Notes under the pieces: generated by a model
Databases searched by the model: none
Seen by the model: only the letters and a program-made list of their open reading frames with translations
Told to the model about the DNA's origin: nothing
Translations under genes and position numbers: made by a program
In this document: in pieces, positions 29,875 to 50,622 of the stretch
Numbering within the stretch: position 1 is the first letter of the stretch
Layout: every line of letters begins with the position of its first letter
Source: a virus
Direction: 5' to 3' (one strand)
Virus record (IMG/VR): IMGVR_UViG_3300034093_001036
Coordinates: 24,580-88,579 of that record
Length of the DNA stretch: 64,000 bases

Positions 29875-30707
29875 ATTGCTACCTTAGATTCATCTATACC
29901 CTTTTTAATATTTGGCTTTTTGAAATCGTGATACCTGTCACCTCTATCAATTCTTTCTTTTTCCATCTTTGCCCATTCTTCAACACCAAATTTTTCTTGA
30001 TTATCGTGCCACTCTTTTGTTCCAGCAAATGGAATTTGATAAAAGCATCTAATAAGATATTTGTCAATATTTCTAATTCTTTTAACACCGTGAAGGTATC
30101 TTCCCTCTTGAGATAATAAATCTGGATGGCCTGAAGGAAAAACCAAAACATCTCCAGCCTCTGGTTTATAATCTATAACCGTTTTATTCCCAGTTAAAAA
30201 TGTTATACCTCCATCGCCATAGTCATCATTCAAATACATTGTGCATGTTAATGCAAATTGTGCTCCTGGGCAATCTGTTTCAAGGGCTTTATAGTCTGAG
30301 TGATGGATCATTTCTAAAGAATCTTTATCGCTATTTGGATCATTGTCATGAGTATATTTTGAAATTGATGGGCCCATAATAATCCAGTCCTCTCCTATTT
30401 TAAGATTATGGGCAGACATAAAATTTTCGGTTGCATAACCAAATGCATGCTGTATTGTTTCTAATGCCTCAACCTCTTCTAAATATAGTGTGTTATTAAT
30501 ATTAGGATCATCTTCATTTAGAAAATTACCAATGACATATACATAGTGTCCAAACCTACTCCATGGTTGCCAATCGTCAAATAAAAAACTAGTTCCTTTG
30601 TTTAATTCAGACTGCTTAAATAATTCTACAATCCTTTTATTGTTTGGAATTAACCCTTTGTAAACATAAATGTTTTCATCTAATTGTTTAACTGTAATAT
30701 TATTCAT
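29871..30707 (-). CDS. 2OG-Fe(II) oxygenase, prolyl-4-hydroxylase type
   Basis: A 278-residue oxygenase with His136-Asp138 (IHHSDY), distal His206 (YLHGVK) and Lys216 at +10. TCTMYLNDDYGDGGITF and YKPEAGDVLVFPSG match its neighbour closely. It is served by the TGGTATAAT box at 30746-30754, which overlaps the stop of the upstream JmjC-like gene. Substrate unknown; the Lys favours a prolyl-hydroxylase-like mode of cofactor binding. Confidence 0.85.
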   Translation of the reverse strand: MNNITVKQLDENIYVYKGLIPNNKRIVELFKQSELNKGTSFLFDDWQPWSRFGHYVYVIGNFLNEDDPNINNTLYLEEVEALETIQHAFGYATENFMSAHNLKIGEDWIIMGPSISKYTHDNDPNSDKDSLEMIHHSDYKALETDCPGAQFALTCTMYLNDDYGDGGITFLTGNKTVIDYKPEAGDVLVFPSGHPDLLSQEGRYLHGVKRIRNIDKYLIRCFYQIPFAGTKEWHDNQEKFGVEEWAKMEKERIDRGDRYHDFKKPNIKKGIDESKVAM

Positions 30708-30745
30708 TTTTTGTCCCCCATTGGATTATCTTTAAACATATAATT

Positions 30746-30754
30746 ATTATACCA
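30746..30754 (-). promoter_or_regulatory. Extended -10 promoter inside end of JmjC-like gene
   Basis: TGGTATAAT is formed by the last Val codon and stop codon (GTA TAA) of the 30747-31301 gene. It would produce a ~30-base leader for the oxygenase starting at 30707. Confidence 0.45.
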
Positions 30755-31301
30755 CCTTGTCTCCAAATAAAATTGCAAAACCAAATCTAGGGGTTATGGG
30801 TTCAACATAGTGGTAAGTTCCACCAGGTATATACAATAGATCTCCTTCTTCTAATATAACATCCATAAAAGGTTGATCATTTTCAACAGAATCATAAAGT
30901 CTCCAACGTGTTTTACCTTTACATTGCCAATGTATATTGTTTTCCCTGTCTTCATGTTTGCCAATAACTTGTCCGCTATCTTCAAGTTTAAGTGAACCAA
31001 ATAACTGACATGTTACAACCTTTAAATCTTTAAAACAAGGATAAAATCTAGAATGAACTTCTTTTACAAATAAATTTACTGAACTTATAATCTGTGCCTC
31101 ATCATAAAATAATGCGTATGGATTAGGCAAAATCTTTTTACCAGTTTTTTTGTGCTCATAATCATTTACAAACTGAAGCACTTCATCCCAGGTAACTTCA
31201 GGCATTGATATTTTTGGAAAAAGAGTTGCTACTTTATTATTATAAGCATTTAAAAAATTATCTTGATCTAAAAAATTAAAATCAAAACTTTTATTTTTCA
31301 T
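30747..31301 (-). CDS. JmjC/cupin-type Fe(II) oxygenase
   Basis: A 184-residue protein distinct from the surrounding oxygenases. Residues ~112-135 (HEDRENNIHWQCKGKTRWRL) match the JmjC/ROX pattern in which HxD (His116-Asp118) is followed by a Trp and a K-x-W-R-L strand; EEGDLLYIPGGTYHYVEPI supplies the distal His164. Family members such as ribosomal oxygenases hydroxylate protein side chains. It is short for a JmjC enzyme, so it probably consists of the catalytic core only. It overlaps the upstream oxygenase by four bases. Confidence 0.7.
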   Translation of the reverse strand: MKNKSFDFNFLDQDNFLNAYNNKVATLFPKISMPEVTWDEVLQFVNDYEHKKTGKKILPNPYALFYDEAQIISSVNLFVKEVHSRFYPCFKDLKVVTCQLFGSLKLEDSGQVIGKHEDRENNIHWQCKGKTRWRLYDSVENDQPFMDVILEEGDLLYIPGGTYHYVEPITPRFGFAILFGDKVV

Positions 31302-31972
31302 TTTGATTTTCCATGTGAACGAATTGTAAAGAAAAAAGGAATAACATATCTAATTCCTTTTTTAATTTCTCTTACTCCGTGAATATAATTTAAATCTCCA
31401 GGGAAGAAATATGCAGAACCCGCTTTTGGCTTAAACTCAATTCCTTGATTTGGGAAATATAACTCTCCACCTTCATAGTCATCATTAAGATAAAAAAGAC
31501 CTGCAATATCATACCAAGGAAAATCATTTGGCTTTCCTACATTGTCTCCTTCGTGCAACTCTTTATCTGCATGTGGGTTTTGTAGTTGTCCTGGAAGCCA
31601 TCTAACAATTGCTGTTGCTGTGGGCCAGGCGTCAATATTAAAAAAATCATTTACTTCTTCTGTAAGCCTGTCTTGAAGGCTTTTAATTACTGGGTTTATA
31701 TTTTTATTATTTTGATCTAATCTATCTCCAGTGCAGACTCTGTCATCCCAATATTTAGAATCATAAATAACAGTTCCTTCTTCGTTATAGTGAGTTTCAG
31801 TAATATCCCAAATTGTAATATTTTTTGCTGATTCTGATAAAAAAGATAGTTCTTCGTCGGTCATAAAATTGTTTCGTGCTTGGATCATATCTGCACTTTT
31901 ACCAAAAAATCCAGAGGGAGTTATTGAAAATCTATCTTTATCTTGGTGATTAGAGTACTCTATTTTTTTCAT
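31298..31972 (-). CDS. 2OG-Fe(II) oxygenase, Arg-type
   Basis: A 224-residue oxygenase with His134-Asp136 (NPHADK), distal His198 (YIHGVR) and Arg208. The AGLFYLNDDYEGGELYFP strand and FKPKAGSAYFFPGD segment are characteristic. A TGATATACT box six bases before the ATG predicts a leaderless mRNA, so this gene starts a transcription unit that continues through the JmjC-like gene and three more oxygenases. Confidence 0.87.
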   Translation of the reverse strand: MKKIEYSNHQDKDRFSITPSGFFGKSADMIQARNNFMTDEELSFLSESAKNITIWDITETHYNEEGTVIYDSKYWDDRVCTGDRLDQNNKNINPVIKSLQDRLTEEVNDFFNIDAWPTATAIVRWLPGQLQNPHADKELHEGDNVGKPNDFPWYDIAGLFYLNDDYEGGELYFPNQGIEFKPKAGSAYFFPGDLNYIHGVREIKKGIRYVIPFFFTIRSHGKSK

Positions 31973-31978
31973 ACAGTT

Positions 31979-31987
31979 AGTATATCA
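31979..31987 (-). promoter_or_regulatory. Leaderless extended -10 promoter of oxygenase gene
   Basis: TGATATACT ends exactly six bases before the ATG at 31972. Confidence 0.6.
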
Positions 31988-31992
31988 TCTTT

Positions 31993-32727
31993 CTATTCAT
32001 ATTTGCGCTGCTCCCAGATTTCATTTTTATATATTCCGCCATTTGGTTTTCTATAAATTTGATAATTTTCTATTGATTGCTTCATTAGTTCAACTGCATT
32101 ATCTTGTTCTATTATTTCAGAAGTCCAGGATTCTCTTTTAAATGGCAGAAGTTGAGCATACGCTGTTCCTTCTGGAATAATTCCCTCAAAACCCTCACAA
32201 ATAAAAAATGGAAAAGATCCAGGCATATGAACTTTGTCGTTATCCACAATTCCACTAGTTAGCAAAAATGGTAACTCAAATCTGTTAAATGGCTGAGTAT
32301 ACAATACGCTATATCCTGGAGGAGTTTTTATTTGCCAATCTGGAGTTATTGCAAAATGATTTTTGTAATACCCGCGGGGGTGTTCAAACTGTGGCATTTC
32401 TGATCTTTCTTCAATTAAGTTTTTATATTTTACATTTAAAACTTTATGTTTTAGTCCAGAATCAGTCATGTAGAATTCAATATCGCAAGGAAGATTAAGA
32501 GAATATCCAGAACCCATAATATCAAAAATTGCAGGACAGGCCTTCCATGTAGGAACTTTTCCACCATCCTCTCCTATATAAAAAGAATTGTCTGTTGGTA
32601 ATTTTGCAAACCTATCTGCTTTTCTAAACCATTCAGGAATTGTTCTTATAATTGGAGTTGGTGCTGACTTGCTTTCTTTTGAAAGCCAAATTTTATTTGC
32701 AATAAAAGATATTTTTTCTGTATTCAT
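31993..32727 (-). CDS. Beta-rich protein of unknown function, paralog of next gene
   Basis: A 244-residue protein that starts with an IPEWFRKADRF-type segment. It aligns over its length with the 236-residue gene at 32727-33437: PAIFDIMGSGYSLNLPCDIE versus PVSLANTTGWTFSFPEDISF, and IIPEGTAYAQLLPFKRE versus TIPAGTPIVCIMPISLK. The layout recalls the DUF6065-type proteins that I remember from phages, but this is from memory. It has no HxD motif and is not an oxygenase. Its presence within the modification cassette suggests an accessory or substrate-binding role. Confidence 0.5.
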   Translation of the reverse strand: MNTEKISFIANKIWLSKESKSAPTPIIRTIPEWFRKADRFAKLPTDNSFYIGEDGGKVPTWKACPAIFDIMGSGYSLNLPCDIEFYMTDSGLKHKVLNVKYKNLIEERSEMPQFEHPRGYYKNHFAITPDWQIKTPPGYSVLYTQPFNRFELPFLLTSGIVDNDKVHMPGSFPFFICEGFEGIIPEGTAYAQLLPFKRESWTSEIIEQDNAVELMKQSIENYQIYRKPNGGIYKNEIWEQRKYE

Positions 32728-33437
32728 TACTTGTCACTTTGATATTTATTAATTGAAAGTTTTAAGGATTTTACTTCGTGCTCTCCAAGGCTATTTCCTA
32801 AATGGTCAACAGCATCTCTATAAAAGTTTGTCCATTGTCCAGACTGAGTTATTTCTCCAGAGGCTTTTCCATATTCAGAAAGATTCTTTTCAAAATCTTG
32901 ATCTTTTACATAGTCGTACAGATTTACTTCTGTTGCTTGGAGTTTTTTTAAACTAATTGGCATAATACAAACAATTGGTGTTCCTGCTGGTATTGTTATT
33001 ACTTCATTTGCCCTTGTTATTTTCCATGCATATGGAAGTGGAGCAAGATGGACAACTGGACTAATTACACTTGAGAATCCTTGAACACCATCAATAAATT
33101 GATTTGGAACTGGAAGGAGCAGTAGACTAATCTCATCAGTACTTTTAAAATATAAACCACTATTAAAACTTATAGTTCCGTTAGCCCTGTTTGCATGAAC
33201 ATACTTTTCTCCAGAAAGAATTTCAAGGTCTTCAGATCTAGAGTTTGGATCTGTTCCTTTCCAAATAAAAGAAATGTCTTCTGGAAAAGAAAATGTCCAT
33301 CCTGTTGTGTTTGCCAACGATACTGGGAAGCAATGATAGGCGTGTTTGTCAAAAGTTTCATCCATCCAGTTTCTTCTAACTTTTAAAGTATCAAAAGTTA
33401 CATCAGAATGTGGTGTTTGATAAACATCTATAGACAT
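32727..33437 (-). CDS. Beta-rich protein of unknown function, paralog of previous gene
   Basis: A 236-residue protein sharing the same strand order as its downstream neighbour, including the GW-F and PAGTP-type turns. A possible DUF6065 relationship is unverified. It begins one base after the stop of the 33439-34125 oxygenase and its stop touches the next ATG, so both paralogs are co-translated between two oxygenases. No catalytic residues can be named. Confidence 0.5.
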   Translation of the reverse strand: MSIDVYQTPHSDVTFDTLKVRRNWMDETFDKHAYHCFPVSLANTTGWTFSFPEDISFIWKGTDPNSRSEDLEILSGEKYVHANRANGTISFNSGLYFKSTDEISLLLLPVPNQFIDGVQGFSSVISPVVHLAPLPYAWKITRANEVITIPAGTPIVCIMPISLKKLQATEVNLYDYVKDQDFEKNLSEYGKASGEITQSGQWTNFYRDAVDHLGNSLGEHEVKSLKLSINKYQSDK

Positions 33438-33438
33438 G

Positions 33439-34125
33439 TTAGTTTCCTGTTTCTAAAAACATCTCTGGTCCATGGAATTTTGCGCTGTAGTCTAGCATTG
33501 TTACAATTGAATATTTAGTTCCGCTAGTAACTGGCATTGCTCTATGAGAATACATATATGTTGATGGGAAAATATACAAATCTCCAGCACGTGGTTTTAC
33601 TAATAAATCTTGGTGTTGAAAATGTAAACCACCGTCGACGTAGTCGTCATTTGGGTATGCAACCAAAGACACTGTACAGTTATAAGAAAATCCATGATCA
33701 TGATGATATTGGAAATGCTGACCCTCATGGTATCTAATAAAATTCATTGCTTCCCAAAACCTTAGTTCTGCAATATTAAACATTTTACGATAGTGCTCAA
33801 CTGCTGGACTTTTTCTATCGTAGCAGTCTTGCCAAAGTTGTTGAAGCGCTAAAGATGCTTCTCCTGGTCTTTGTGCCATATCTTTCTTTGTAAACTTAAA
33901 GTCAACACAATCTCTATATTCTGGCATGCTTTCTTGATAGCCAACAAACGCTTCCATCCAGTGAAATGGGTTGCTTTGGTCTTCAAGAACAGACTCTAAT
34001 CTGTTAATAATATCCAGTTCTTTAGGTAAAACATCTCTATAGACAAAAATTCCACTCCCTAGATCTTCAAAAGACGACCAGGTTTGCTCTATAGGGGTTG
34101 TCTCAGTTTGAACATGTTTTTGCAT
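33439..34125 (-). CDS. 2OG-Fe(II) oxygenase, prolyl-4-hydroxylase type
   Basis: A 228-residue oxygenase with His141-Asp143 (YHHDHGF), distal His194 (YSHRAM) and Lys204 at +10. The VAYPNDDYVDGGLHF and KPRAGDLYIFPSTYMY segments closely follow those of the 34161-34865 protein, with which it shares an N-terminal layout (FVGYQ..YRDCVDFKF versus VRNCIDIKYK). The two are paralogs. It has a promoter TGCTATAAT ~27 bases upstream and an AGGAAAAA ribosome site. Confidence 0.87.
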   Translation of the reverse strand: MQKHVQTETTPIEQTWSSFEDLGSGIFVYRDVLPKELDIINRLESVLEDQSNPFHWMEAFVGYQESMPEYRDCVDFKFTKKDMAQRPGEASLALQQLWQDCYDRKSPAVEHYRKMFNIAELRFWEAMNFIRYHEGQHFQYHHDHGFSYNCTVSLVAYPNDDYVDGGLHFQHQDLLVKPRAGDLYIFPSTYMYSHRAMPVTSGTKYSIVTMLDYSAKFHGPEMFLETGN

Positions 34126-34151
34126 TTTTTCCTGCTTTCTACTATGTATAT

Positions 34152-34160
34152 ATTATAGCA
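34152..34160 (-). promoter_or_regulatory. Extended -10 promoter of oxygenase gene
   Basis: TGCTATAAT lies at the 3' end of the upstream oxygenase gene and yields a short leader with a ribosome site before the ATG at 34125. Confidence 0.45.
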
Positions 34161-34865
34161 CTAGTTATTCTTATGATGTAAATCGTTATAGTCTGTCATA
34201 ATTACAACAGAATACTTTATACCCTGCAATAATTCACAAGAGGCATGCTCATAAACAAAATTTGATGGGAAAAGAACAATGTCTCCAGCCTGGGGCTTAA
34301 TCTTTAATTCTTGTCTTGGAAACTCTAATTCTCCACCAACATAGTCATCATTAAGATATAGTATTGCAGATATTGTACATGCATAGAATGGGCCATGGTC
34401 ACCATGAAGTTTAAAATATTTCCCAGGTAGATACTTAACAAAATTAAAGGCTTCTTTGTATTTCATCTGAAGATGCCATAAAGACTCATAATCATTTAGG
34501 CAGACATCTAATGCGTCTTCTACCTCTTTGTGTATGTCAAACATGTCTTGATTAAAAGATATCCCAGACTTTCCAAGCATATCTCTTTTATATTTTATAT
34601 CAATGCAGTTCCTAACATAATCTAAATTTTCTACATCATTAACCATTGCTGTAGACCAAGAAAGGTTACAGTCTGGATCGTTTGCTGAGTTTTCTAGTCT
34701 TTTAATTATACTATCACACTGGCTTCTATTTATGGCATTTTTATATACATTAATACCGTAGCCAATATTTAAAACCTCTATGTTATTTGACATTGATCTA
34801 GACTTTAGCCTACTGTCTGCTTTTTCTAATCTTGGTAAATCAAGCCACCCAAAGTTATTTGTCAT
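34161..34865 (-). CDS. 2OG-Fe(II) oxygenase, prolyl-4-hydroxylase type
   Basis: A 234-residue oxygenase with His154-Asp156 (KLHGDHG), distal His207 (YEHASC) and Lys217 at +10. AILYLNDDYVGGELEFP and KPQAGDIVLFPSN are typical. It is a paralog of the downstream oxygenase and also resembles the one at 47410-47931. TGCTATAAT six bases before the ATG indicates leaderless expression. Confidence 0.87.
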   Translation of the reverse strand: MTNNFGWLDLPRLEKADSRLKSRSMSNNIEVLNIGYGINVYKNAINRSQCDSIIKRLENSANDPDCNLSWSTAMVNDVENLDYVRNCIDIKYKRDMLGKSGISFNQDMFDIHKEVEDALDVCLNDYESLWHLQMKYKEAFNFVKYLPGKYFKLHGDHGPFYACTISAILYLNDDYVGGELEFPRQELKIKPQAGDIVLFPSNFVYEHASCELLQGIKYSVVIMTDYNDLHHKNN

Positions 34866-34871
34866 TCTAAT

Positions 34872-34880
34872 ATTATAGCA
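34872..34880 (-). promoter_or_regulatory. Leaderless extended -10 promoter of oxygenase gene
   Basis: TGCTATAAT ends exactly six bases before the ATG at 34865. Confidence 0.6.
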
Positions 34881-34909
34881 TATCTACATATTTATACAAA
34901 ATATTAATT

Positions 34910-35587
34910 TTAAATTTGATATATGTAAATTTCTGCAAAATCATAAATTGGATCTTTTTTAAGCAATTCTTTAAAAATATAATCATTTTCAAAATGAAAA
35001 ACAAAAAAGGATTTAGATTTTGATAAAATTTCCCATTTATCTAATATTAATTTATTAAAAATTTCAGGCAGCAATGGGTAATAAAAATAATAAACACACT
35101 TTTCTTCTGAAAAATGATAATCATTTATATCACTATTTATAAAATCAACTTCTTTATCTATTTCTATATTAATTGTTTTTAAATTATTTAAAGCAATATT
35201 GTTGAATTGATCGTCTATCTCTACACCTACATACTTCTTATACGGTGCATTTGAGATTAACTGATGTAAAATTGTTTTTCCCTTACCGCTACCTATATCT
35301 AAAAAGGTATACTCCTCAATTCCTTCAATATCTTTCATAAAATTATTCACCATGTCTAAAATTTTTAAAGGTGAGTTCTGTAAACCCATTGATCCTGGAA
35401 ACCTATCATTATTATCAATACTGCCTGGCACATATTCACCAGAACCATCTGAGGCTAAAGGAGTTGGATGCCAAGTGTCTACATTATATTTTTCATCAAA
35501 AAATTTGAATAATGAAGCGTCTTCTCTTCTAATTTTTTTTAATACATCTAAATTCTTTATTGTACTTTTGTCTACACCTTTATGCAT
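34910..35587 (-). CDS. SAM-dependent methyltransferase
   Basis: A 225-residue class I methyltransferase. Motif I is FLDIGSGKGKT (residues 95-105), the acidic loop after strand 2 is GVEID (121-125), and FINSDINDYHF follows as motif II-like. The GSGKGKT form with the preceding GLQNSPLKILDMV is similar to phage and DOT1-like protein methyltransferases; the target cannot be read from the sequence. It overlaps the AspH-type gene by eight bases and lies in the modification cassette, so a virion protein is a plausible substrate. Confidence 0.75.
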   Translation of the reverse strand: MHKGVDKSTIKNLDVLKKIRREDASLFKFFDEKYNVDTWHPTPLASDGSGEYVPGSIDNNDRFPGSMGLQNSPLKILDMVNNFMKDIEGIEEYTFLDIGSGKGKTILHQLISNAPYKKYVGVEIDDQFNNIALNNLKTINIEIDKEVDFINSDINDYHFSEEKCVYYFYYPLLPEIFNKLILDKWEILSKSKSFFVFHFENDYIFKELLKKDPIYDFAEIYIYQI

Positions 35588-36167
35588 TTTTTGCTCCTAA
35601 ATATTTGTTTGGCATGATATCAATTATAGCATGGATTCTGTCATGGTCACTATCGTTTATTACTGAGTGTGGAATAATATTATTAATCTCATACCAATTT
35701 CCAACCTCAAGATACTTTTTTTCTTCAAATACTTCAAATATGACTTTTGGATTTGTTATTAGTGGAATATGTATTCTTCTACCGAGTTGTAGCATTACCC
35801 CGCCATCAACGTGAGATTTTATTCCAGAGCGCTTATTCATTTGAATTATCTCACTCCTAATAACTTTGCCATCGTACAAGTTTTCTAAATATTCATAAAT
35901 AGCATTAAGGCTTTCATTAGATTGTTTATTTTTAAAATAATTTATATCATAAGATGTATTGCCTTGTCCAATTTCCCAATGATAAGACATAAACCTTAGT
36001 TGAAACATTTTTGTATCTTTGTGCGTTGCCAACTTGTCTTGACGAGAAGTATCCAGTAGCCACTCATTTTCAAAAGAGTTAACTTCTTGAATTATTGAAG
36101 ATAGATCAACTGGTAAAGATCCATATTGATAGTTCCAAGAAGTATTCTTATCTGGTAGTTTTAACAT
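35580..36167 (-). CDS. Aspartyl/asparaginyl beta-hydroxylase-type oxygenase
   Basis: A 195-residue oxygenase of a different subtype. The residues SHVDGG (His119-Asp121), then RRIHIPLITNP, and IIPHSVIND (His167) followed by RIHAIID (Arg177) match the AspH family, in which the R-x-H-x-P-L strand is diagnostic. It would hydroxylate Asp, Asn or another side chain. It overlaps the sulfotransferase-like gene by 20 bases and the methyltransferase by eight. Confidence 0.8.
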   Translation of the reverse strand: MLKLPDKNTSWNYQYGSLPVDLSSIIQEVNSFENEWLLDTSRQDKLATHKDTKMFQLRFMSYHWEIGQGNTSYDINYFKNKQSNESLNAIYEYLENLYDGKVIRSEIIQMNKRSGIKSHVDGGVMLQLGRRIHIPLITNPKVIFEVFEEKKYLEVGNWYEINNIIPHSVINDSDHDRIHAIIDIMPNKYLGAKNA

Positions 36168-36834
36168 AATCGTAAATTTCCATATCTAAATTGTTTAATT
36201 CTTCAATTTTATTTTTCATTGAATCTGATATTTTAATAGTTTGAAAATTTTCATTAATAGCATTTTTATTTGAAAAACTATAAAACCCATATGCCTGATA
36301 ACATAGATCATTTAACCTTGATATAAAAGATGAATGATTGTCTAATGTATCTATTAGAGCCATTGAGTCTATAAGGTCTTTTACTTCTTTTATATCTACG
36401 CTACCTTCTTCAAGGCACCAACTTTCATTGGCTCTTTGAATTCCGTGGTCTAAAGAATTATAAAAATCTTCGTTTAAACTTTTATTTAAACTTCTAGCCT
36501 GAAGGTTATGGTGTTTTGAATTTTCCACCCATTTTTCAAGTTGAGCCTCTAAGTGAGCACCTTTAAAAGATGGATGTAAATAAATAAAGTTGCTTATAAA
36601 TCTATCTAATGGATTTCTAACCAAGCCTATATTTATTAAGTCGTCTCTATACTTTAATGCAGTCAGACCAAAGTGCCCTGAAATAAACCGTTTATCAACA
36701 AAGGTTTTTGGAAAAACCTCTCCGTGGTTTGTAGCAAAGTATGGAATCTTCCTAATCTTTAGATCATTAACAATATGAGTCTTTATATATATACCCGAAC
36801 ATCTTGGGATATGTATATGATTTATTGAACTCAT
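36148..36834 (-). CDS. Sulfotransferase-like protein
   Basis: A 228-residue protein with the two marks of PAPS-dependent sulfotransferases: an N-terminal HIPRCSGIYIK (residues 8-18), equivalent to the 5'-phosphosulfate loop HxPKxGGT, and GLVRNPLDRFISNFIYLHP (Arg73 onward), equivalent to the 3'-phosphate motif RdPvdRxxS. The P-loop is divergent (CSG in place of TGG), so activity is uncertain. It begins one base before the stop of the Hint fibre gene ends upstream, and could sulfate a glycan or tyrosine on a virion protein. Confidence 0.65.
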   Translation of the reverse strand: MSSINHIHIPRCSGIYIKTHIVNDLKIRKIPYFATNHGEVFPKTFVDKRFISGHFGLTALKYRDDLINIGLVRNPLDRFISNFIYLHPSFKGAHLEAQLEKWVENSKHHNLQARSLNKSLNEDFYNSLDHGIQRANESWCLEEGSVDIKEVKDLIDSMALIDTLDNHSSFISRLNDLCYQAYGFYSFSNKNAINENFQTIKISDSMKNKIEELNNLDMEIYDYVKTTR

Positions 36835-36835
36835 A

Positions 36836-38200
36836 CTACTGAGAATCTCTGATAGTTAAGCCTTGGAAGGCACCCTTCTTATTATGAGAGATTAGATCTC
36901 CTGCAATAAAGAGTGAATAAGGATTTACAGTGATGTCATAAACATCTGTTGTTTCATCAATATATTCAACAACTTCAACAAGGGTATCAACTGCTTGATT
37001 ATTGATATCGGATACTAGGTAGTCTCCAACTTTAACGACGCCAGCCTGTACGAATGCATAGACTCCATCTCTCTTAACAAGCATCAAGTGCTCCATAGAG
37101 AATCGTTTTTCGTTGGTGCTATTGAATGCTACTGTAGTTGCAACATCTCTAGCCTTGATTGCTCCGATAACTGTTTCAACAACTGATGATCCAGTTAGAG
37201 TATCAGATACCCATGTCTCAGCAAAATCAACAGATGAGTTATCTGGTAATTCATTGAAACTGTAGGATACTAGACTTTGTCCAATAGCCAGGTCTCTTGC
37301 TTTAACATATCCACTAGTTGTTCTTACAAGAACATCACCTTGTACGCAGAATACTGGTGGGAAGAACGGACAGAATACTGGTGGGAAGAACGGACAGAAT
37401 ACTGGTGGGAAGAACGGACAAAAACGTGGTGGGAAGAACGGACAGAATACTGGTGGGAAGAACGGTGGGAAGAATGGGAAGAACGGACAAAAACGTGGTG
37501 GGAAGAACGGTGGGAAGAACGGTGGGAAGAATGGGAAGAACGGTGGGAAGAATGGTGGGAAGAATGGGAAGAACGGTGGGAAAAATGGAGGGAAGAAAGG
37601 AGGTGTTGTTGTAACGTTGTTAGAACTATTACCGTATAGTCCATCTCCATTAGCATTTATAGCAAGAACCTGATAACTCTGTGATGTATCTCCAGTTTCT
37701 GCTACAGTTGTTGACAAAACATTTCCTACAACATAAACTGGACCATCAGAAGACTTTACACGATATCCAGTAATTGCAGATCCGCCAGTTGCAGGTGCTG
37801 TCCAAGATACTGTATCTAAGTTAACGGCTGTAGTTGCTGTTGGAGCATTTGGAGCAGCAGGAACTGTTGTTGCCAATACTCCTGCTGATGCAGAAGATGC
37901 TGCTGATGTTCCCGCAGCATTAGTTCCTGTTACTGTAAATGTGTAAGAAGTATTTGATGCAAGACCATCAACGGTAATTGGAGAGGCAGAAGAACTTCCT
38001 GTAAACCCTCCTGGAGAAGATGTTACTGTAAATGATGTTGCTGCTGGAGAATCTCCTGGTAATGAAAAACTAACACTTATGGCACCATTGTTAAACGCAC
38101 GTGAAGTTCCTACGTTTGTGCCTACAACAGATATGGGTGGTTTTGGCTCTAATGAGTCATTCTGTTGTAAAGATTTAGATCCTAGTTCTTTTTTTGCCAT
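36836..38200 (-). CDS. Fibre protein with FN3 domains, Pro/Phe/Cys repeat and Hint domain
   Basis: A 454-residue protein in three parts. Residues ~18-200 are two fibronectin type III-like domains (SFTVTSSPGG..., ITGYRVKSSDGP). Residues ~205-290 are a striking repeat built from PFFPP and PFFPPVFC units. From the Cys in CVQGDVLVRTT onward (about 150 residues) lies a Hint domain: block A with Cys1, a block B His in SMEHLMLV, and block F ending VYDITVNPYSLFIAGDLISHN. The His-Asn end is followed by Lys, not Cys/Ser/Thr, so cleavage rather than splicing is expected. The Hint part is almost the same as in 48124-49845. Modification enzymes follow directly downstream. Confidence 0.8.
   Translation of the reverse strand: MAKKELGSKSLQQNDSLEPKPPISVVGTNVGTSRAFNNGAISVSFSLPGDSPAATSFTVTSSPGGFTGSSSASPITVDGLASNTSYTFTVTGTNAAGTSAASSASAGVLATTVPAAPNAPTATTAVNLDTVSWTAPATGGSAITGYRVKSSDGPVYVVGNVLSTTVAETGDTSQSYQVLAINANGDGLYGNSSNNVTTTPPFFPPFFPPFFPFFPPFFPPFFPFFPPFFPPFFPPRFCPFFPFFPPFFPPVFCPFFPPRFCPFFPPVFCPFFPPVFCPFFPPVFCVQGDVLVRTTSGYVKARDLAIGQSLVSYSFNELPDNSSVDFAETWVSDTLTGSSVVETVIGAIKARDVATTVAFNSTNEKRFSMEHLMLVKRDGVYAFVQAGVVKVGDYLVSDINNQAVDTLVEVVEYIDETTDVYDITVNPYSLFIAGDLISHNKKGAFQGLTIRDSQ
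37346..37606. repeat. GGTGGGAAGAACGG-type tandem repeat coding PFFPP units
   Basis: Short units GGTGGGAAGAACGG with variants ACAGAATACT and ACAAAAACGT recur here without interruption. On the minus strand they encode PFFPPVFC and PFFPP repeats. The repeat makes every frame open, giving several long spurious ORFs. Confidence 0.9.
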
Positions 38201-45302: not shown

Positions 45303-45330
45303 AACACCTACCAAGGTGTTGTTGTTTTCT
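45303..45330 (+). other. 5' hairpin in lysozyme mRNA leader
   Basis: AACACCT-ACCA-AGGTGTT forms a seven-pair stem with a four-base loop, followed by GTTGTTTTC and then the AAGGAGG ribosome site. Being at the predicted 5' end, it may stabilise the message or act as a weak attenuator. Confidence 0.55.
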
Positions 45331-45342
45331 AAGGAGGAAACT

Positions 45343-45906
45343 ATGATTAAATTTATCGAAAGAAACAAAGAGATCATTAGCACACTCAGTATCGTAGCAC
45401 TAGTAACAGTTATGTCTAATTCTGCTAATGCTATTTCAGATTTTGATACTAAGAATAACCTTAGCCTGAAACAGGCTCAGACATCGGAAACCACCTCGAA
45501 AGAGGTTTTTTTGGTTTCTAAAGCAAAAAAGTTAGAGAGTTTTGAAAATAAGGTTTCTCTAACAGATTTAGAACTAAAGGAACTGCTTTCCCTAGTTGGC
45601 TTCAAGGGTAAAGACCTTGTTGTGGCTTGGGCAGTAGCAAAGAAAGAATCTAATGGACGACCATTGGCCTTTAATGGCAATCACAAGACTGGGGATTCGT
45701 CTTATGGTATGTTCCAAATTAATATGATTGATACACTTGGTCCTGATCGTAGGGACAAGTTTGATCTTGACTCTAACGCTGAATTATTTAATCCCGTCAA
45801 GAATGCTGAAATTGCATACTACATGACAAAGGGTGGGGACGACTGGTCTTCTTGGAAAGGCATCACTCCAAAGACTAAGGAATGGATGGCTAAGTTTCCT
45901 CGCTAA
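45343..45906 (+). CDS. Secreted lysozyme/transglycosylase-like protein
   Basis: A 187-residue protein, the only rightward gene within the late region. A Sec signal peptide is clear: basic MIKFIERNKE, hydrophobic IISTLSIVALVTVM, and an SANA cleavage site near residue 28. The C-terminal ~100 residues have a lysozyme-like fold: VAKKESNGRPLAF supplies the catalytic Glu, and DSSYGMFQINMID is the standard substrate-cleft segment of SLT-type muramidases. The spacer between signal and domain is Ser/Thr/Lys-rich. The ATG at 45343 has AAGGAGGAAACT before it. It should degrade peptidoglycan, as endolysin or exported muralytic enzyme. Confidence 0.8.
   Translation: MIKFIERNKEIISTLSIVALVTVMSNSANAISDFDTKNNLSLKQAQTSETTSKEVFLVSKAKKLESFENKVSLTDLELKELLSLVGFKGKDLVVAWAVAKKESNGRPLAFNGNHKTGDSSYGMFQINMIDTLGPDRRDKFDLDSNAELFNPVKNAEIAYYMTKGGDDWSSWKGITPKTKEWMAKFPR
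45493..45512 (+). terminator. Terminator-like hairpin inside lysozyme gene
   Basis: ACCTC-GAAA-GAGGT followed by seven T residues lies in the linker-coding part of the lysozyme gene. A flanking AAACC/GGTTT pair can extend the stem. It looks like a true intrinsic terminator, yet it is within the coding frame. Confidence 0.55.
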
Positions 45907-46856
45907 TTCCTTCTTGGTGGCATGCCAAGTGCCCTAGGCTCAACTACAACATGTGAACTGTAGTTTGGAATAAAGTCTGTGTATTTTGTGTCTATACCAG
46001 ACTCTTTAAGAAAATTGTAAACTTTTTCTTTTGGAATTTCTAATTGACCAGACATTAGCATAGACAGTCTATTAGTTGATTCTTCAACATGGCTCCAGTA
46101 GTGTTCTTTTCTGCCGTCTGCCCAAGGCCTAAGCGTTTCTCTTGTTACAGATCCATTTGCCTGTCCATGCGACTGATTGTGAAAAACATCCCTTGTGCCA
46201 ATAGAGTAAATTTTCCAATCTTTTGCATAAGTTCTTAAAGATAAAGCAAACTCTTCAGTATTGAATGATTCTTTACCGCTAATACCAACTTCATCAATCC
46301 ATTGCTTGGGTGCAAAAAGGTAACAACATGTAGCCCAATACGAACGAACTATTTCCTCTATTTCTAAAACCCTGTATCCTGGAAACTGAAATCCTGGAAC
46401 TAAATTATTAAATAAAAATCCATACAGTGATACTTTACAGTCTGTAACAAAATTAATTGACCCGTCTGACATTATTTTATACTCTGCTGGGGCATATGCA
46501 ATAATAAATTTTTCATTATTAATATTTAATTTTTCATATCTTTCAACAGCAAACCTATCCCATTCTGGTGCTGCATAGGTGTGTGAATCAAACTGTATAA
46601 AATAGTTATAATCTACATTAACTTGAGTTGCCAAGTTTCTAGCCCAACAGACACCACCCCTATACTCTGAAAGATCAAAGTGCCTATATAATAACTGTTC
46701 TTTTGGTATAAAAGATAAATCATATTTAGTATTATCTTCTGAAACTATAGAAAAATACAGATCCTCTTTATTTTTTGCCTGATGCCACAAAGAAAACATT
46801 GTAGAATAAAACTCTGGGTCACAATAATTGACAACACTAACTAATATTTTTTTCAT
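45903..46856 (-). CDS. GlcNAc-transferase-like glycosyltransferase
   Basis: A 317-residue GT-A fold enzyme. It starts KKILVSVVNYCDPEF, has a GGVCWARNLATQ helix that binds the nucleotide sugar, and an FIQFDSHTYAAPEWD segment (Asp90, His92, Asp100) in which DSH takes the place of the usual DxD. This combination is characteristic of the GlcNAc family (PF11397; GT60), known for adding GlcNAc to hydroxyproline of Skp1 in Dictyostelium. It overlaps the oxygenase at 46853 by four bases. Target and sugar are inferred. Confidence 0.75.
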   Translation of the reverse strand: MKKILVSVVNYCDPEFYSTMFSLWHQAKNKEDLYFSIVSEDNTKYDLSFIPKEQLLYRHFDLSEYRGGVCWARNLATQVNVDYNYFIQFDSHTYAAPEWDRFAVERYEKLNINNEKFIIAYAPAEYKIMSDGSINFVTDCKVSLYGFLFNNLVPGFQFPGYRVLEIEEIVRSYWATCCYLFAPKQWIDEVGISGKESFNTEEFALSLRTYAKDWKIYSIGTRDVFHNQSHGQANGSVTRETLRPWADGRKEHYWSHVEESTNRLSMLMSGQLEIPKEKVYNFLKESGIDTKYTDFIPNYSSHVVVEPRALGMPPRRN

Positions 46857-47413
46857 CCCTTATTTCTTATTCCAGTATATAAATGTTGTGGGCCTTTTGT
46901 AAAAAACCAATGATCTGGCTCTACATAAAAGAAAAAAGCATTTGCAACTAGGTTATTCTTTGGGTCAGGGAATTCCTCTCTCCAGTGTTGTTGATCATTC
47001 CCGTATGAAATAACCATATCATTTTCTTCTGGTTGAAACTTTATTCCTTCAACATAAAAATCCCAAGGTGTTTTATGAAAAATTGTATAATTCATATGGT
47101 ATGTACAAGCATTATCATCAACATGTTTCCAAAGTCTAGCCTTTTCTCCTTCATAGATACTTAATAAACACCAGGAAGGAAGTAATGTTTCTGATTCAAA
47201 TTCTTCTTTTGCCAGTGGTAGAAGCATCTGATGAAATTTTCTAAGTGGTATTATATTTTCTCTATGTGTTCCGTCCCAAATTGCCCATTGATGTCTACCA
47301 AAACCTTCGTCAAATGTACTTTTATCTGTTGACCAAAGATGCATTGCTAGATCTTGTAATTCCTTATGTTCTTTTTCTGGAAGAACGGTTTTTAATAAAT
47401 ATGGCGCTTTCAT
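46853..47413 (-). CDS. 2OG-Fe(II) oxygenase, divergent
   Basis: A 186-residue protein with HVDD (His97-Asp99) and a distal His143 in NDQQHWREEF. The typical strands are present (NYTIFHKTPWDFYVEGIKFQ and EENDMVISYGND), but the usual GG-x-L-x-F segment is replaced, so it is a more distant member. It is sandwiched in overlap between the GlcNAc transferase and another oxygenase, which suggests a shared substrate. Confidence 0.7.
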   Translation of the reverse strand: MKAPYLLKTVLPEKEHKELQDLAMHLWSTDKSTFDEGFGRHQWAIWDGTHRENIIPLRKFHQMLLPLAKEEFESETLLPSWCLLSIYEGEKARLWKHVDDNACTYHMNYTIFHKTPWDFYVEGIKFQPEENDMVISYGNDQQHWREEFPDPKNNLVANAFFFYVEPDHWFFTKGPQHLYTGIRNKG

Positions 47414-47931
47414 CGTAGAAAACTAACTACTGCATATTTATCGCCTTCAATAATTGGGGATACTGAGTGATTATAAACATATATAGATGGAAATATAATT
47501 ATTTGATTAGTTTTTGGTTTAAGTTTAATATTAAATCTTGGAAAGTTTATTTCTCCACCAATATAATCATCATTTAAATAATATACAACTGAAACTCTTC
47601 TATGATATTCGGTTCCGTCATCTACATGATTAATAAAACCTTGTCCTGGACTATATTTCATTATTCCGTATACGTCATGCCATTCAGGAAATATCTTATA
47701 ATACTCTTTATAGTCTTTCTCTATTGGATCAAAATGATCAAAGAACAACCTGTTTAATTTTAAAGAAGTTATTTTTTCTAAATCTTCAACTTCTGCATAA
47801 GACCATTTAGGTGTAATCCATTTAGAATCCATCATCAATTTTTGAATTTCTTTATATAAAAAAACATTATCTGGAATTACATTATCATATACAACAATTC
47901 CTGGAGCAATTTCTTCTTTTATCATTACCAT
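47410..47931 (-). CDS. 2OG-Fe(II) oxygenase, prolyl-4-hydroxylase type
   Basis: A 173-residue oxygenase, close to a minimal catalytic core. The triad is His102-Asp104 (NHVDDG) and His155 (YNHSVS), with Lys165 at +10. VVYYLNDDYIGGEINFP matches the cluster at 28-35 kb. I start it at the ATG at 47931, preceded by TTAGGAAA and overlapping the upstream stop; a longer frame reaching 47991 lies inside the upstream gene and lacks a ribosome site. Confidence 0.85.
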   Translation of the reverse strand: MVMIKEEIAPGIVVYDNVIPDNVFLYKEIQKLMMDSKWITPKWSYAEVEDLEKITSLKLNRLFFDHFDPIEKDYKEYYKIFPEWHDVYGIMKYSPGQGFINHVDDGTEYHRRVSVVYYLNDDYIGGEINFPRFNIKLKPKTNQIIIFPSIYVYNHSVSPIIEGDKYAVVSFLR

Positions 47932-48122
47932 TTTCCTAACGGACACGATGCTGCTTCTAACATTACTTTTGCTTTCATAAAACATCCACATTTTTTACAT
48001 TGTTTTGTTAATTTTATTAGTTCTGGACATTGTTTGCATATATTAAATCTTTGATTAGAGAGATCTGATTCCTTTACATAATTTTTTAAATTAAGCATGT
48101 GTAAAGGATTTACTTCGTTCAT
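47925..48122 (-). CDS. Small Cys-rich zinc-binding protein
   Basis: A 65-residue protein with FNICKQCPEL, KQCKKCGCFMKAKVML and ASCPLGKW. This Cys spacing is that of a small family widespread in T4-like and cyanophages, often next to fibre or modification genes; its function is unknown. It probably binds one zinc ion. It lies between the Hint fibre and the prolyl-hydroxylase-like gene. Confidence 0.7.
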   Translation of the reverse strand: MNEVNPLHMLNLKNYVKESDLSNQRFNICKQCPELIKLTKQCKKCGCFMKAKVMLEAASCPLGKW

Positions 48123-48123
48123 T

Positions 48124-49845
48124 TTATTCTGAATCTCTTTGTGTTAGGCCTTGGAAGACACCCTTCTTATTATGAGAGATTAGATCTCCTGCAATAAAGA
48201 GTGAATAAGGATTTACAGTGATGTCATAAACATCTGTTGTTTCATCAACATAACCCAATACTTCAACAAGTACATCTGTTGCTTGATTATTTATGTCATA
48301 AACTAAATAGTCGCCAAGTTTAATTACACCAGCCTGAATAAATGCGTATACTCCATCTCTCTTAACTAGCATTAAGTGCTCTAGAGAGAATCTTCTTTGC
48401 TTACTACCATTAAACATTACAGTAGTTGCAACATCTCTTGCCTTAATTGCACTAATAGTTGTTTCAACAACTGATGATCCAGTTAGAGTATCAGATACCC
48501 ATGTCTCAGCAAAATCAACAGATGAGTTATCTGGTAATTCATTGAAACTGTAGGATACTAGACTTTGTCCTATAAACAAATCTCTTGCTTTAACATATCC
48601 ACTAGTTGTTCTTACAAGAACATCACCCTGTACACATCCATCAATTGGTGCAACTGGTGTTGGTTCAGTTGGAGTTGGGGTAAATACTGGTGGGAAGAAT
48701 GGACAGAATACTGGTGGGAAGAATGGACAGAATACTGGTGGGAAGAACGGACAGAATGATGGTGGGAAGAACGGTGGGAAGAACGGTGGGAAGAACGGTG
48801 GGAAGAATGGTCCTGTTGCTGGAGGCGTACAGTCTTGTGTGTCCGAATCTGTTCCTGTTGTAACAATTGGGGCTGGGTTTGGAGAACATCCACTTGCAGT
48901 TTCTGTTATAGTATACGATCTAGTTCTTGTTTGTGCATATTCATCTGGGCCACCAACTCTTACACAAGCACCCCAAGGACCCCACTCACCGTAAGTTGTT
49001 GTTGTTGTCCAGGTTGGTACACATGTTGGTGCAACTGGTGCAACTGGTGCAACTGGTGCAACTGGTGCAGTTGGTGTAGGTGTTGTACAAGTTACTGATG
49101 GATATCCTGAAGAACTTGCTGCAGTAATATTGGTTGCAGTTGGATATGTTGCTAATAAATTATCTAATGCCTGTCCTGATGTTGCTCCTGTGTCAGTAAC
49201 CGTAGTTCCACCAACACAACCAGAGATATACCAAGTTGTTGCAACAGGTGTTGGAGTAGGTGTTGTACAAGTTACTGATGGATATCCTGAAGAACTTGCT
49301 GCAGTAATATTGGTTGCAGTTGGGTGAACTTCTAGAAGATTATCAAGGGCTCTTCCTGATGTTGGACCTTCTCCATAAACAGGACTTCCATTAACGCAAC
49401 CAGAGATGTACCAAGTAACAGGTGTTGGTGTTGGTGTTGGTACACATGCTGCAGGAATTCCCAATAAAGTAACAATTTCAGCACTTGACAAGTTTGATAT
49501 TGTAGTTGTTCCTGTAATGTTTGTAATTCCTGATCCTGTAGGAGGTGTTCCATAAGCGCCTGAATAAGCAGTCGTTGATCCGTTACATGTTACATAAATA
49601 TCATAAATTGTAACCTCTGGTGTTGGTGTTACAGGAGTAGGTGCTACAGGAGTAGGTTCTACAGGAGTAGGTGCTACAGGAGTAGGTGCTACAGGAGTAG
49701 GTGCTACAGGAGTAGGTGCTACAGGAGTAGGTGCTACAGGAGTAGGTTCTACAGGAGTAGGTGCTACAGGAGTAGGTGCTACAGGAGTAGGAGTTGCTGC
49801 TAAAAATATTCCTATACCACTTGGGCCACGAAATAATGGACTCAT
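48124..49845 (-). CDS. Second Hint-domain fibre with TPVAP repeats
   Basis: A 573-residue protein. After a short N-terminus comes a TPVAP/TPVEP repeat (about residues 17-75), then repeated ~55-residue modules (WYISGCVGGTTVTDTGATSG twice, one diverged copy), an APV repeat, a thrombospondin-type-1-like segment (YGEWGPWGACV ... QTRTRSY), a PFFPP/PPVFC repeat, a second TPTEPTPVAP linker, and a C-terminal Hint domain nearly identical to that of 36836-38200 (Cys1 in CVQGDVLVRTT; end LISHN followed by KKG). The downstream genes encode two oxygenases and a GlcNAc transferase, which could modify the Pro/Thr repeats. Confidence 0.8.
   Translation of the reverse strand: MSPLFRGPSGIGIFLAATPTPVAPTPVAPTPVEPTPVAPTPVAPTPVAPTPVAPTPVAPTPVEPTPVAPTPVTPTPEVTIYDIYVTCNGSTTAYSGAYGTPPTGSGITNITGTTTISNLSSAEIVTLLGIPAACVPTPTPTPVTWYISGCVNGSPVYGEGPTSGRALDNLLEVHPTATNITAASSSGYPSVTCTTPTPTPVATTWYISGCVGGTTVTDTGATSGQALDNLLATYPTATNITAASSSGYPSVTCTTPTPTAPVAPVAPVAPVAPTCVPTWTTTTTYGEWGPWGACVRVGGPDEYAQTRTRSYTITETASGCSPNPAPIVTTGTDSDTQDCTPPATGPFFPPFFPPFFPPFFPPSFCPFFPPVFCPFFPPVFCPFFPPVFTPTPTEPTPVAPIDGCVQGDVLVRTTSGYVKARDLFIGQSLVSYSFNELPDNSSVDFAETWVSDTLTGSSVVETTISAIKARDVATTVMFNGSKQRRFSLEHLMLVKRDGVYAFIQAGVIKLGDYLVYDINNQATDVLVEVLGYVDETTDVYDITVNPYSLFIAGDLISHNKKGVFQGLTQRDSE
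48685..48808. repeat. Second PFFPP-coding tandem repeat
   Basis: The same GGTGGGAAGAA(C/T)GG units as at 37346-37606, coding PFFPP and PFFPPVFC on the minus strand. Confidence 0.85.
49079..49322. repeat. 180-bp-spaced direct repeat in Hint fibre gene
   Basis: A segment of about 64 bases beginning GTGTTGTACAAGTTACTG at 49079 recurs unchanged at 49259. It marks duplication of a ~60-residue WYISGC module. Confidence 0.85.
49630..49793. repeat. 15-bp TPVAP-coding tandem repeat
   Basis: About eleven copies of a 15-base unit (ACAGGAGTAGGTGCT and variants with TTCT) encode PTPVA or PTPVE on the minus strand. Confidence 0.9.
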
Positions 49846-49863: not shown

Positions 49864-50622
49864 CTAAGCAAACTTGTTCTGTGATGCAAGAGCAGTAAAT
49901 GTTTCTGCACCTGTTTTCCTAATTGTATAAACATAAACATCTGTTGAGTTAATGTTTCCTGAAGAAGGGGCTATTCCACCTAACCATTTAGGAGTTACTG
50001 ATGCACCATCAACAGTAAGTGCTGTTGGGTAATATGCAGTTCCACTTTGAGGAGATTCAAATACAACAGAGATTTGCTGACCTGTTGCCATTAATGAATT
50101 AAGAGTAGTTGTTGCATTGCCACGAATATTTATTGTCCAATTTGCGACGGCATTGGAAGTACGAATATCAATAGAAGAAGTAGCAACATCAATATCAATT
50201 GCTCCAGTTGCTGCTGTTGCAGAAATAGTTGTTAATTCTTTTGGTGATACAAGTGAAGATTTATCAACTCCGTCTACATAAGACTTTGTTGCTAAAAGAG
50301 AAGTATCTGCTATGCCATGGACATTTGTTGTAGATGAATTATGTGTTGTAATTGCAGCATTTCTGGCTAATACTTCTGCTGCATCTGCTGCAGTTCTATT
50401 TACTACTTCAAGAGCATCTGCATCTACAAGATTCTGTAAATGTTTTGCAATAGATGGGGTTAAAAGGTTTGCGGTATTTGTATTTGAACCGTCATAGGCA
50501 TAAGATCCATAGTGGTAAAGTCTTAGCGCTGCTTGAATATCGGCTGCATCTGAAAGTCCAGGTATTTTGGCATTGAATAGCCCAGTACCACCAACGGTAT
50601 TGTCAATATTCTCTGCTGCCAC
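49864..50622 (-). CDS. Fibre-type virion protein
   Basis: A 252-residue protein with GTG start. The N-terminus (LSDAADIQAALRLYHYGSYA) resembles T4-like cyanophage fibre attachment segments; HNSSTTNVHGIADTSLLATK and ATKSYVDGVD are fibre motifs also seen in the 905-residue fibre; the C-terminal ~100 residues are a compact beta domain. AAAGGGTG serves as ribosome site and a TGGTATAAT box lies 18 bases upstream. Confidence 0.7.
   Translation of the reverse strand: MAAENIDNTVGGTGLFNAKIPGLSDAADIQAALRLYHYGSYAYDGSNTNTANLLTPSIAKHLQNLVDADALEVVNRTAADAAEVLARNAAITTHNSSTTNVHGIADTSLLATKSYVDGVDKSSLVSPKELTTISATAATGAIDIDVATSSIDIRTSNAVANWTINIRGNATTTLNSLMATGQQISVVFESPQSGTAYYPTALTVDGASVTPKWLGGIAPSSGNINSTDVYVYTIRKTGAETFTALASQNKFA

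What the first reader, a model, noticed from the sequence alone, without database searches (positions are those of the whole stretch)
48124..48640. Second, nearly identical Hint domain on a different fibre
The C-terminal ~150 residues and much of the DNA (for example the stretches at 36884-36960 and 48172-48240) are shared with 36836-38200, while the N-terminal parts of the two proteins are unrelated. Differences are mostly synonymous. This points to recent duplication or ongoing gene conversion of the Hint module, and to a module that can be attached to any fibre. Both copies keep Cys1, the block B His, the His-Asn end and the FQGLT-RDS tail.
Basis: seen in the sequence. Interest (0 to 1): 0.7.

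Follow-up and report, generated by a model that had tools for sequence, protein, structure and literature searches.

The report
Paired self-cutting caps on phage fibres
A probable freshwater actinobacteria-type phage carries two different fibre-like proteins that end in the same intein-like (Hint) cap; parts of the two caps have been copied into each other by gene conversion, and related phages carry similar matched pairs, so this is a swappable end-cap whose chemistry is kept in some phages and lost in others.

Summary
Copies A (36836-38200) and B (48124-49845) end in collinear 170-residue Hint domains without indels: 86.4% DNA and 87% protein identity. Homology also covers the preceding PFFPP array; the rest is unrelated. 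"Mostly synonymous" is only just true (28 synonymous, 22 nonsynonymous codons).

The duplication is not recent. The middle is diverged (pS 0.4-0.9), but tracts of 111 and 90 nt are identical. In the first tract the paralogues differ at 0/27 silent sites, while orthologous B copies of two strains differ at 4/27. That is gene conversion.

AlphaFold gives a confident Hint fold (pLDDT 91) closest to Hedgehog, intein and BIL domains. Both copies keep Cys1, block-B His, block-F Asp and His-Asn, with Lys at +1, the A-type BIL pattern. I infer self-excision or cleavage at the end of the array; no activity was shown.

Relatives: five lineages carry two Hint-tailed proteins whose Hints group by lineage, not by fibre type. 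The closest FN3 relatives carry other ends. Many relatives have lost catalytic residues, yet keep the fold and purifying selection (dN/dS 0.13-0.39). No paper found describes this. New variant of a known kind.

The parts
48124..49845 (-). Copy B protein (573 aa): (APTPV)n stalk, Cys-containing repeats, PFFPP(V)FC array, Hint cap
   Evidence: ORF; own gene, separated from the in-frame upstream gene 49864-50622 by TAGTAGTAA
48127..48636 (-). Hint domain of copy B, residues 404-573, ending HN + KKGVFQGLTQRDSE
   Evidence: AlphaFold pLDDT 91.1; Z 16-18 to Hog, intein and BIL structures
48634..48636 (-). Cys1 of Hint B (predicted N-S acyl shift nucleophile)
48376..48378 (-). block-B His of Hint B (SLEH)
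48223..48225 (-). block-F Asp of Hint B (VYDITV; the F:4 assignment is inferred)
48169..48174 (-). His-Asn C-terminal pair of Hint B, followed by Lys (+1)
48127..48168 (-). 14-residue C-terminal tail of copy B (KKGVFQGLTQRDSE), candidate C-extein
48637..48810 (-). PFFPP(V)FC array and TPTPTEPTPVAPIDG linker before Hint B
49624..49794 (-). (APTPV)n repeat stalk of copy B
36836..38200 (-). Copy A protein (454 aa): two FN3 domains, PFFPP(V/R)FC array, Hint cap
   Evidence: ORF; Pfam fn3 E 9.5e-10, two stretches
36839..37348 (-). Hint domain of copy A, residues 285-454, ending HN + KKGAFQGLTIRDSQ; Cys1 at 37346-37348, block-B His 37088-37090, HN 36881-36886
   Evidence: Pfam Intein_splicing E 2e-5, below curated cut-off
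37349..37600 (-). PFFPP(V/R)FC array of copy A; Hint Cys1 occupies the Cys position of the next repeat
48460..48570 (-). Gene-conversion tract 1, 111 nt identical to 37172-37282
48159..48248 (-). Gene-conversion tract 2, 90 nt identical to 36871-36960
37172..37282 (-). Tract 1 in copy A
36871..36960 (-). Tract 2 in copy A
49864..50622 (-). Gene upstream of copy B; its homologue is fused in one ORF with a PFFPP + Hint end in L133 and L160

Best explanation
The feature is a C-terminal cassette (PFFPP stalk array plus Hint domain) carried by two otherwise unrelated fibre-like proteins of one phage. The cassette was shared between the two genes long ago, and parts of it are still homogenised by gene conversion (well supported here). 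The Hint has the residue pattern of an A-type bacterial intein-like (BIL) domain. Most likely it folds at the end of the stalk, forms a thioester at Cys1 and cyclises Asn156. It thereby either removes itself and joins the 14-residue tail (KKG-FQGLT-RDS) to the stalk, or, more often, leaves a cleaved stalk end. I infer that it acts as a self-removing end-cap for assembly or maturation of the fibre tip, the place that Peptidase_S74 holds on a sister protein. Shown: architecture, residues, predicted fold, conversion, recurrence in other viruses. Inferred: autoprocessing, its products, and the location on the virion.
For: Conversion: two identical tracts with 0 silent differences, silent divergence 0.4-0.9 between them, P = 0.00035. 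In tract 1 paralogues in one genome differ at 0/27 silent sites against 4/27 for B orthologues; the middle shows the reverse, 20/47.7 against 6/46.5. Strain 2 has T141/A144 in both copies. Chemistry: Cys1, block-B His, block-F Asp and His-Asn in both copies, +1 Lys. Fold: pLDDT 91.1; Hog 1at0 Z 17.6 rmsd 2.1 over 135, CthBIL 2lwy Z 16.7 rmsd 1.6 over 129; Foldseek best hit is 2lwy. Cap role: the Hint sits at or near the C-terminus in the 3'-complete relatives. Sister proteins with the same FN3 + array end in S74-like, Cys-rich or no caps; L094 has PFFPP followed by Peptidase_S74, E 3.7e-11. Literature: A-type BILs have His-Asn, lack the +1 nucleophile and give mainly cleavage, some splicing (PMC4031507, PMC7765530).
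Against: No biochemical data. Block-B first position is Ser rather than Thr. In many relatives the tail after Asn is a single Lys (HNK), so C-terminal cleavage would free almost nothing. Several relatives lack block-B His, His-Asn, or Cys1, so self-cleavage cannot be the only function of the domain. Pfam scores are below the curated cut-offs. No structural proteomics exists, so virion location is inferred.
Confidence: 0.66

Rival explanations
1. The Hint is a structural cap (trimerisation or receptor-facing tip) whose fold, not its chemistry, is what selection keeps; catalysis in the window copies is residual or incidental.
For: Relatives that lost block-B His and His-Asn (L126, L135, L140, L134, L223) or Cys1 and His-Asn (L165, L238, L239, L228) keep the domain at the same place. 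They keep a confidently predicted Hint fold (L126: pLDDT 90.9, best Z 17.4) and purifying selection, dN/dS 0.18-0.39 against 0.16-0.33 for intact ones.
Against: The window copies and about ten other sequence types keep the full residue set, including His-Asn, which a purely structural role does not need. The C-terminal pair lies in a conversion tract, so its identity between A and B is not independent evidence of selection.
Confidence: 0.25
2. Hedgehog-like transfer: the Cys1 thioester is attacked by an outside nucleophile (an amine or hydroxyl of another fibre, the cell wall or a sugar), so the stalk end is covalently attached to something.
For: Structure is as close to Hog as to inteins (Z 17.9). 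Relatives ending in HNK have no real C-extein, and Ser1...FD relatives lack His-Asn, so N-terminal chemistry would be the useful part.
Against: No sterol-recognition or other acceptor-binding region follows the Hint. The window copies have a 14-residue tail and His-Asn, which Hog lacks. No partner is known.
Confidence: 0.2
3. The low divergence in the two tracts reflects DNA- or codon-level constraint, not gene conversion.
For: Tract 2 contains the conserved block F/G of the domain.
Against: The same tract 1 shows 4 silent changes in 27 sites between B orthologues of two strains and 2 between A orthologues, so silent change is tolerated there. T141/A144 shared by both strain-2 copies needs transfer or double parallel change.
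Confidence: 0.05
4. Assembly artefact: short-read collapse or chimeras made the two copies look alike.
For: Strain-2 contigs L011 and L015 both start at the same base inside the shared stretch, as assemblers do at repeats.
Against: In strain 1 both copies lie on single contigs in other assemblies (IMGVR 3300042324_000823, 3300043435_000575), and copies from several metagenomes agree with the window's A or B apart from one base in L004. The identical tracts are shorter than usual reads.
Confidence: 0.04

Closest known systems
A-type bacterial intein-like (BIL) domains, e.g. CthBIL (PDB 2lwy)
   Same: Hint fold (Foldseek rank 1; Z 16.7, rmsd 1.6 over 129 residues), Cys1, block-B His, His-Asn end, no Cys/Ser/Thr at +1, located in repetitive, variable proteins
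   Different: On phage fibre-like proteins, at the C-terminus after a PFFPP array; two per genome and gene-converted; many relatives have lost catalytic residues
Inteins (class 1)
   Same: Fold and N-terminal Cys, His-Asn end
   Different: No +1 Cys/Ser/Thr, no homing endonuclease, not inserted in a conserved host-protein site, about 14 (or 1) residues after the Asn
Hedgehog autoprocessing (Hog) domain, 1at0/6tyy
   Same: Fold (Z 17.6-17.9), C-terminal position, Cys1
   Different: His-Asn end present, no sterol-recognition region
Hint at the C-terminus of collagen-like virion structural protein of Erwinia/Dickeya/Yersinia jumbo phages (e.g. NC_061447.1 MPK70_gp111)
   Same: 25-30% identity over the whole domain, Cys1, THEH, HN near the C-terminus of a repetitive virion protein, tail of about 10 residues
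   Different: One copy per genome, collagen repeats instead of PFFPP, +1 Thr or Val
Peptidase_S74 intramolecular chaperone (ICA) caps
   Same: C-terminal, (elsewhere) self-cleaving cap of phage fibres; found after a PFFPP array in L094
   Different: Unrelated fold and chemistry
Uncultured Caudovirales proteins A0A6J7WKC1 (Hint), A0A6J5MFV5 and A0A6J5NYB8 (FN3), A0A6J5NY54 (PASTA)
   Same: Predicted structures match at TM 0.83-0.91 of the query, 25-48% identity; probably the same family
   Different: Named by automatic annotation only; no study of them was found

Membership tests
HINT superfamily | Hint fold | tested here: met
   AlphaFold pLDDT 91.1; 84 PDB chains at Z >= 8, best matches Hog, inteins, BIL
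A-type BIL | N-terminal Cys1 and block-B His | tested here: met
   C285/H371 in A, C404/H490 in B
A-type BIL | C-terminal His-Asn | tested here: met
   HN at 439-440 (A) and 558-559 (B)
A-type BIL | No Cys/Ser/Thr at +1 | tested here: met
   +1 is Lys in both copies
A-type BIL | Self-cleavage or splicing activity | not testable with these tools
   needs expression of the precursor
A-type BIL | Groups with known A-type BILs rather than inteins or Hog | tested here: inconclusive
   Foldseek best hit is a BIL; VIA puts Hog and Mtu RecA intein first and BIL 1.2 Z below the best; Pfam best hit of the window Hints is Intein_splicing below cut-off; no tree with reference BILs was made
Class 1 intein | +1 Cys, Ser or Thr | tested here: not met
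   +1 Lys
Class 1 intein | Inserted within a conserved protein, with a real C-extein | tested here: not met
   domain is C-terminal; only 14 residues follow
Hedgehog Hog domain | C-terminal Hint without His-Asn, followed by a sterol-recognition region | tested here: not met
   His-Asn present, no further domain
Peptidase_S74 cap | S74 sequence family | tested here: not met
   no S74 match in A or B; S74 is present on a sister PFFPP protein

The most novel reading that the evidence does not exclude
The pair is kept alike within each virus lineage because the two caps must work together or with the same partner.
Probability: 0.25. Interest if true: 0.8.

Novelty: new variant of a known kind. Interest (0 to 1): 0.58.

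Why it matters
BIL domains have no settled biological role. Here they are found as a swappable end-module of phage fibre-like proteins, in matched pairs within virus lineages, with intact and catalytically decayed forms side by side under similar purifying selection. That gives a natural series for asking what the Hint fold does besides self-cleavage. It also shows gene conversion spreading parts of a module between putative host-contact genes of one phage.

Tried and rejected
Isolates carrying close relatives: tblastn with other Hint subtypes in INPHARED found nothing or only the Erwinia/Dickeya/Yersinia group, and copy A's FN3 part found nothing. Stop-codon readthrough joining 49864-50622 to copy B: same frame, but three consecutive stops (TAGTAGTAA) and a possible ribosome site (AGGTAG) argue for two genes. 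Mosaic signal in a second pair (G005, 84% DNA): none, longest silent-free run P 0.73, so recent conversion is shown only in the window lineage. Literature for Hint-tailed fibres: the phage papers found concern inteins in terminase, helicase and ribonucleotide reductase; a freshwater phage survey (PMC6802176) and a Nanopelagicales phage paper (PMC10202952) do not mention such domains.

Full report
What was checked. The window is bases 24580-88579 of an 88,579-base IMG/VR virus record that holds exactly two matches to this Hint domain. Both are at the C-terminal ends of minus-strand ORFs: copy A 36836-38200 (454 aa) and copy B 48124-49845 (573 aa). The domains are 170 residues long, collinear, without indels, 86.4% identical in DNA and 87% in protein. 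There are 28 synonymous and 22 nonsynonymous codons (NG86 dN 0.083, dS 0.42). BLASTN similarity covers about 700 bp and takes in the PFFPP(V/R)FC array before the Hint. Upstream of that, A has two FN3 domains and B an (APTPV)n stalk with Cys-containing repeats. In A the Hint Cys1 stands exactly where the next array Cys would stand.

Duplication or conversion. Divergence is strongly mosaic. Two stretches, Hint nt 67-177 (37172-37282 = 48460-48570) and nt 389-478 (36871-36960 = 48159-48248), are identical. Codons 59-130 carry silent divergence of 0.39-0.91. The longest run without a silent difference is 38 codons (P = 0.00035). A second strain (metagenome 3300032220) is represented by L011, whose flanks match downstream of B at about 96%, and L015, whose flanks match downstream of A at 86-94%. 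In tract 1, A1-B1 differ at 0/27 silent sites, B1-B2 at 4/27 and A1-A2 at 2/27; in the middle the order is reversed (20/47.7 against 6/46.5 and 0/48.7). Both strain-2 copies carry T141/A144 where both strain-1 copies carry A141/T144, and strain-2 B has A-type bases at 57-66. This is gene conversion laid over an older duplication. Caveat: both strain-2 contigs begin at the same base in the shared stretch, as assemblers do at repeats.

What the domain is. The best Pfam match of the window Hints is Intein_splicing, below the curated cut-off. AlphaFold on 26 aligned relatives gives pLDDT 91.1, pTM 0.85. Foldseek's best PDB hit is the Clostridium thermocellum BIL domain 2lwy. VIA-align gives Hog 6tyy/1at0 Z 17.9/17.6, Mtu RecA intein 17.2, and BIL 2lwy 16.7 with rmsd 1.6. 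Both copies have Cys1, block-B His, block-F Asp and His-Asn, with Lys at +1 and a 14-residue tail. By the definitions in PMC4031507 and PMC7765530 this is the A-type BIL pattern: Cys1 thioester, Asn cyclisation, no +1 nucleophile, products mostly cleaved and sometimes ligated. Activity itself cannot be tested here.

Relatives. In INPHARED the only matches are Erwinia, Dickeya and Yersinia jumbo phages, where the Hint ends a collagen-like virion structural protein. Sorted by a simple rule, the 3'-complete PFFPP ORFs with distinct ends are 13 with a Hint, 4 with an S74-like end (one confirmed by Pfam), 26 with Cys-rich short tails, 50 with no cap and 10 others; this is not a complete census. Homologues of copy A's FN3 part (80 kept loci) likewise carry different ends, and the closest outside the species (68-74%) have no Hint. 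None of 29 contigs whose FN3 protein lacks a Hint has one elsewhere on the contig, though many contigs are fragments.

Matched pairs. Six further contigs (G005, G007, G012, G023, G025, G032) carry two Hint proteins about 6-11 kb apart. One is the FN3 type; the other has a different N-terminus (PASTA-like in G023, G025 and G032, by eye; other in G005, G007, G012). With the window that is seven contigs in five lineages. In each lineage the two Hints share the same catalytic state and kind of end (HNKKG-FQGLT; HNK with block-B Gln; HN(Y/F)K--F; HNK; IA). In the tree they group by lineage, though the support for the G032 pair is shared with L080. Forcing the seven FN3-type Hints into one clade is rejected (AU p 2e-38). 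That group was defined by N-terminal architecture, but a first tree had already been seen, and G007_A is a partial sequence.

Decay. Among 59 sequences (some near-identical), some keep Cys1, block-B His and His-Asn; some have Cys1, Gln for the block-B His, and HNK; some have Cys1, Gln or Glu, and no His-Asn (IA, IS, NQ, RN); some have Ser at the first position with block-B His and FD; L132 has lost all. Reduced forms show dN/dS 0.13-0.39, intact ones 0.16-0.33 (dS is high in many pairs, so these are rough). The L126 Hint is still predicted as a confident Hint fold (pLDDT 90.9, best Z 17.4). So the fold has a use beyond self-cleavage, or the reduced forms use partial chemistry; PMC7664689 notes that some inteins splice without block-B His or the penultimate His.

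Host. The portal protein is 45-48% identical to Streptomyces phages of the Jay2Jay/Coruscant kind, so an actinobacterial host is plausible but not shown. The freshwater setting is my inference and was not checked in the records.

Judgement. Observation confirmed; gene conversion and portability supported; recent duplication not. Membership: A-type BIL by residues and fold, activity untested. The new elements are the matched, converted pair on two fibre-like proteins and the decay series. Novelty rests on ten searches of an open-access library only.

Noticed in passing
window 28305-36167 and 47410-47991: Nine dioxygenase-type genes (seven 2OG-FeII_Oxy_3, one JmjC, one Asp/Arg hydroxylase) crowd around the Pro-rich, PFFPP and collagen-like fibre genes; they might hydroxylate the fibres.
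   Followed up: partly
window 36148-36834, 45903-46856, 34910-35587, 32727-33437: Sulfotransferase, GlcNAc-type glycosyltransferase, methyltransferase-like and DUF6065 genes sit in the same cluster, suggesting several fibre modifications.
   Followed up: partly
window 37349-37600, 48637-48810; L052-L171: PFFPPFFPP arrays are frequent in IMG/VR contigs (scan stopped at 120 stretches) with many kinds of C-terminal end.
   Followed up: partly
window 49864-50622; L133, L160: The gene upstream of copy B is split from it by TAGTAGTAA in the same frame, while in L133 and L160 its homologue is one ORF with the PFFPP + Hint end.
   Followed up: yes
L006, L007 versus L003, L005, L010: Copy B's stalk varies by whole modules between otherwise near-identical contigs (one extra 60-aa TWYISGC repeat; APVAPV and other repeat counts differ).
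   Followed up: no
window 45316-45906: A plus-strand ORF that looks like a lytic transglycosylase lies inside the minus-strand fibre cluster; no family search was run on it.
   Followed up: no
L253, L254, L255: The partner Hint proteins start with what looks like a PASTA domain, a cell-wall-binding module, which would fit contact with a Gram-positive-type wall.
   Followed up: no
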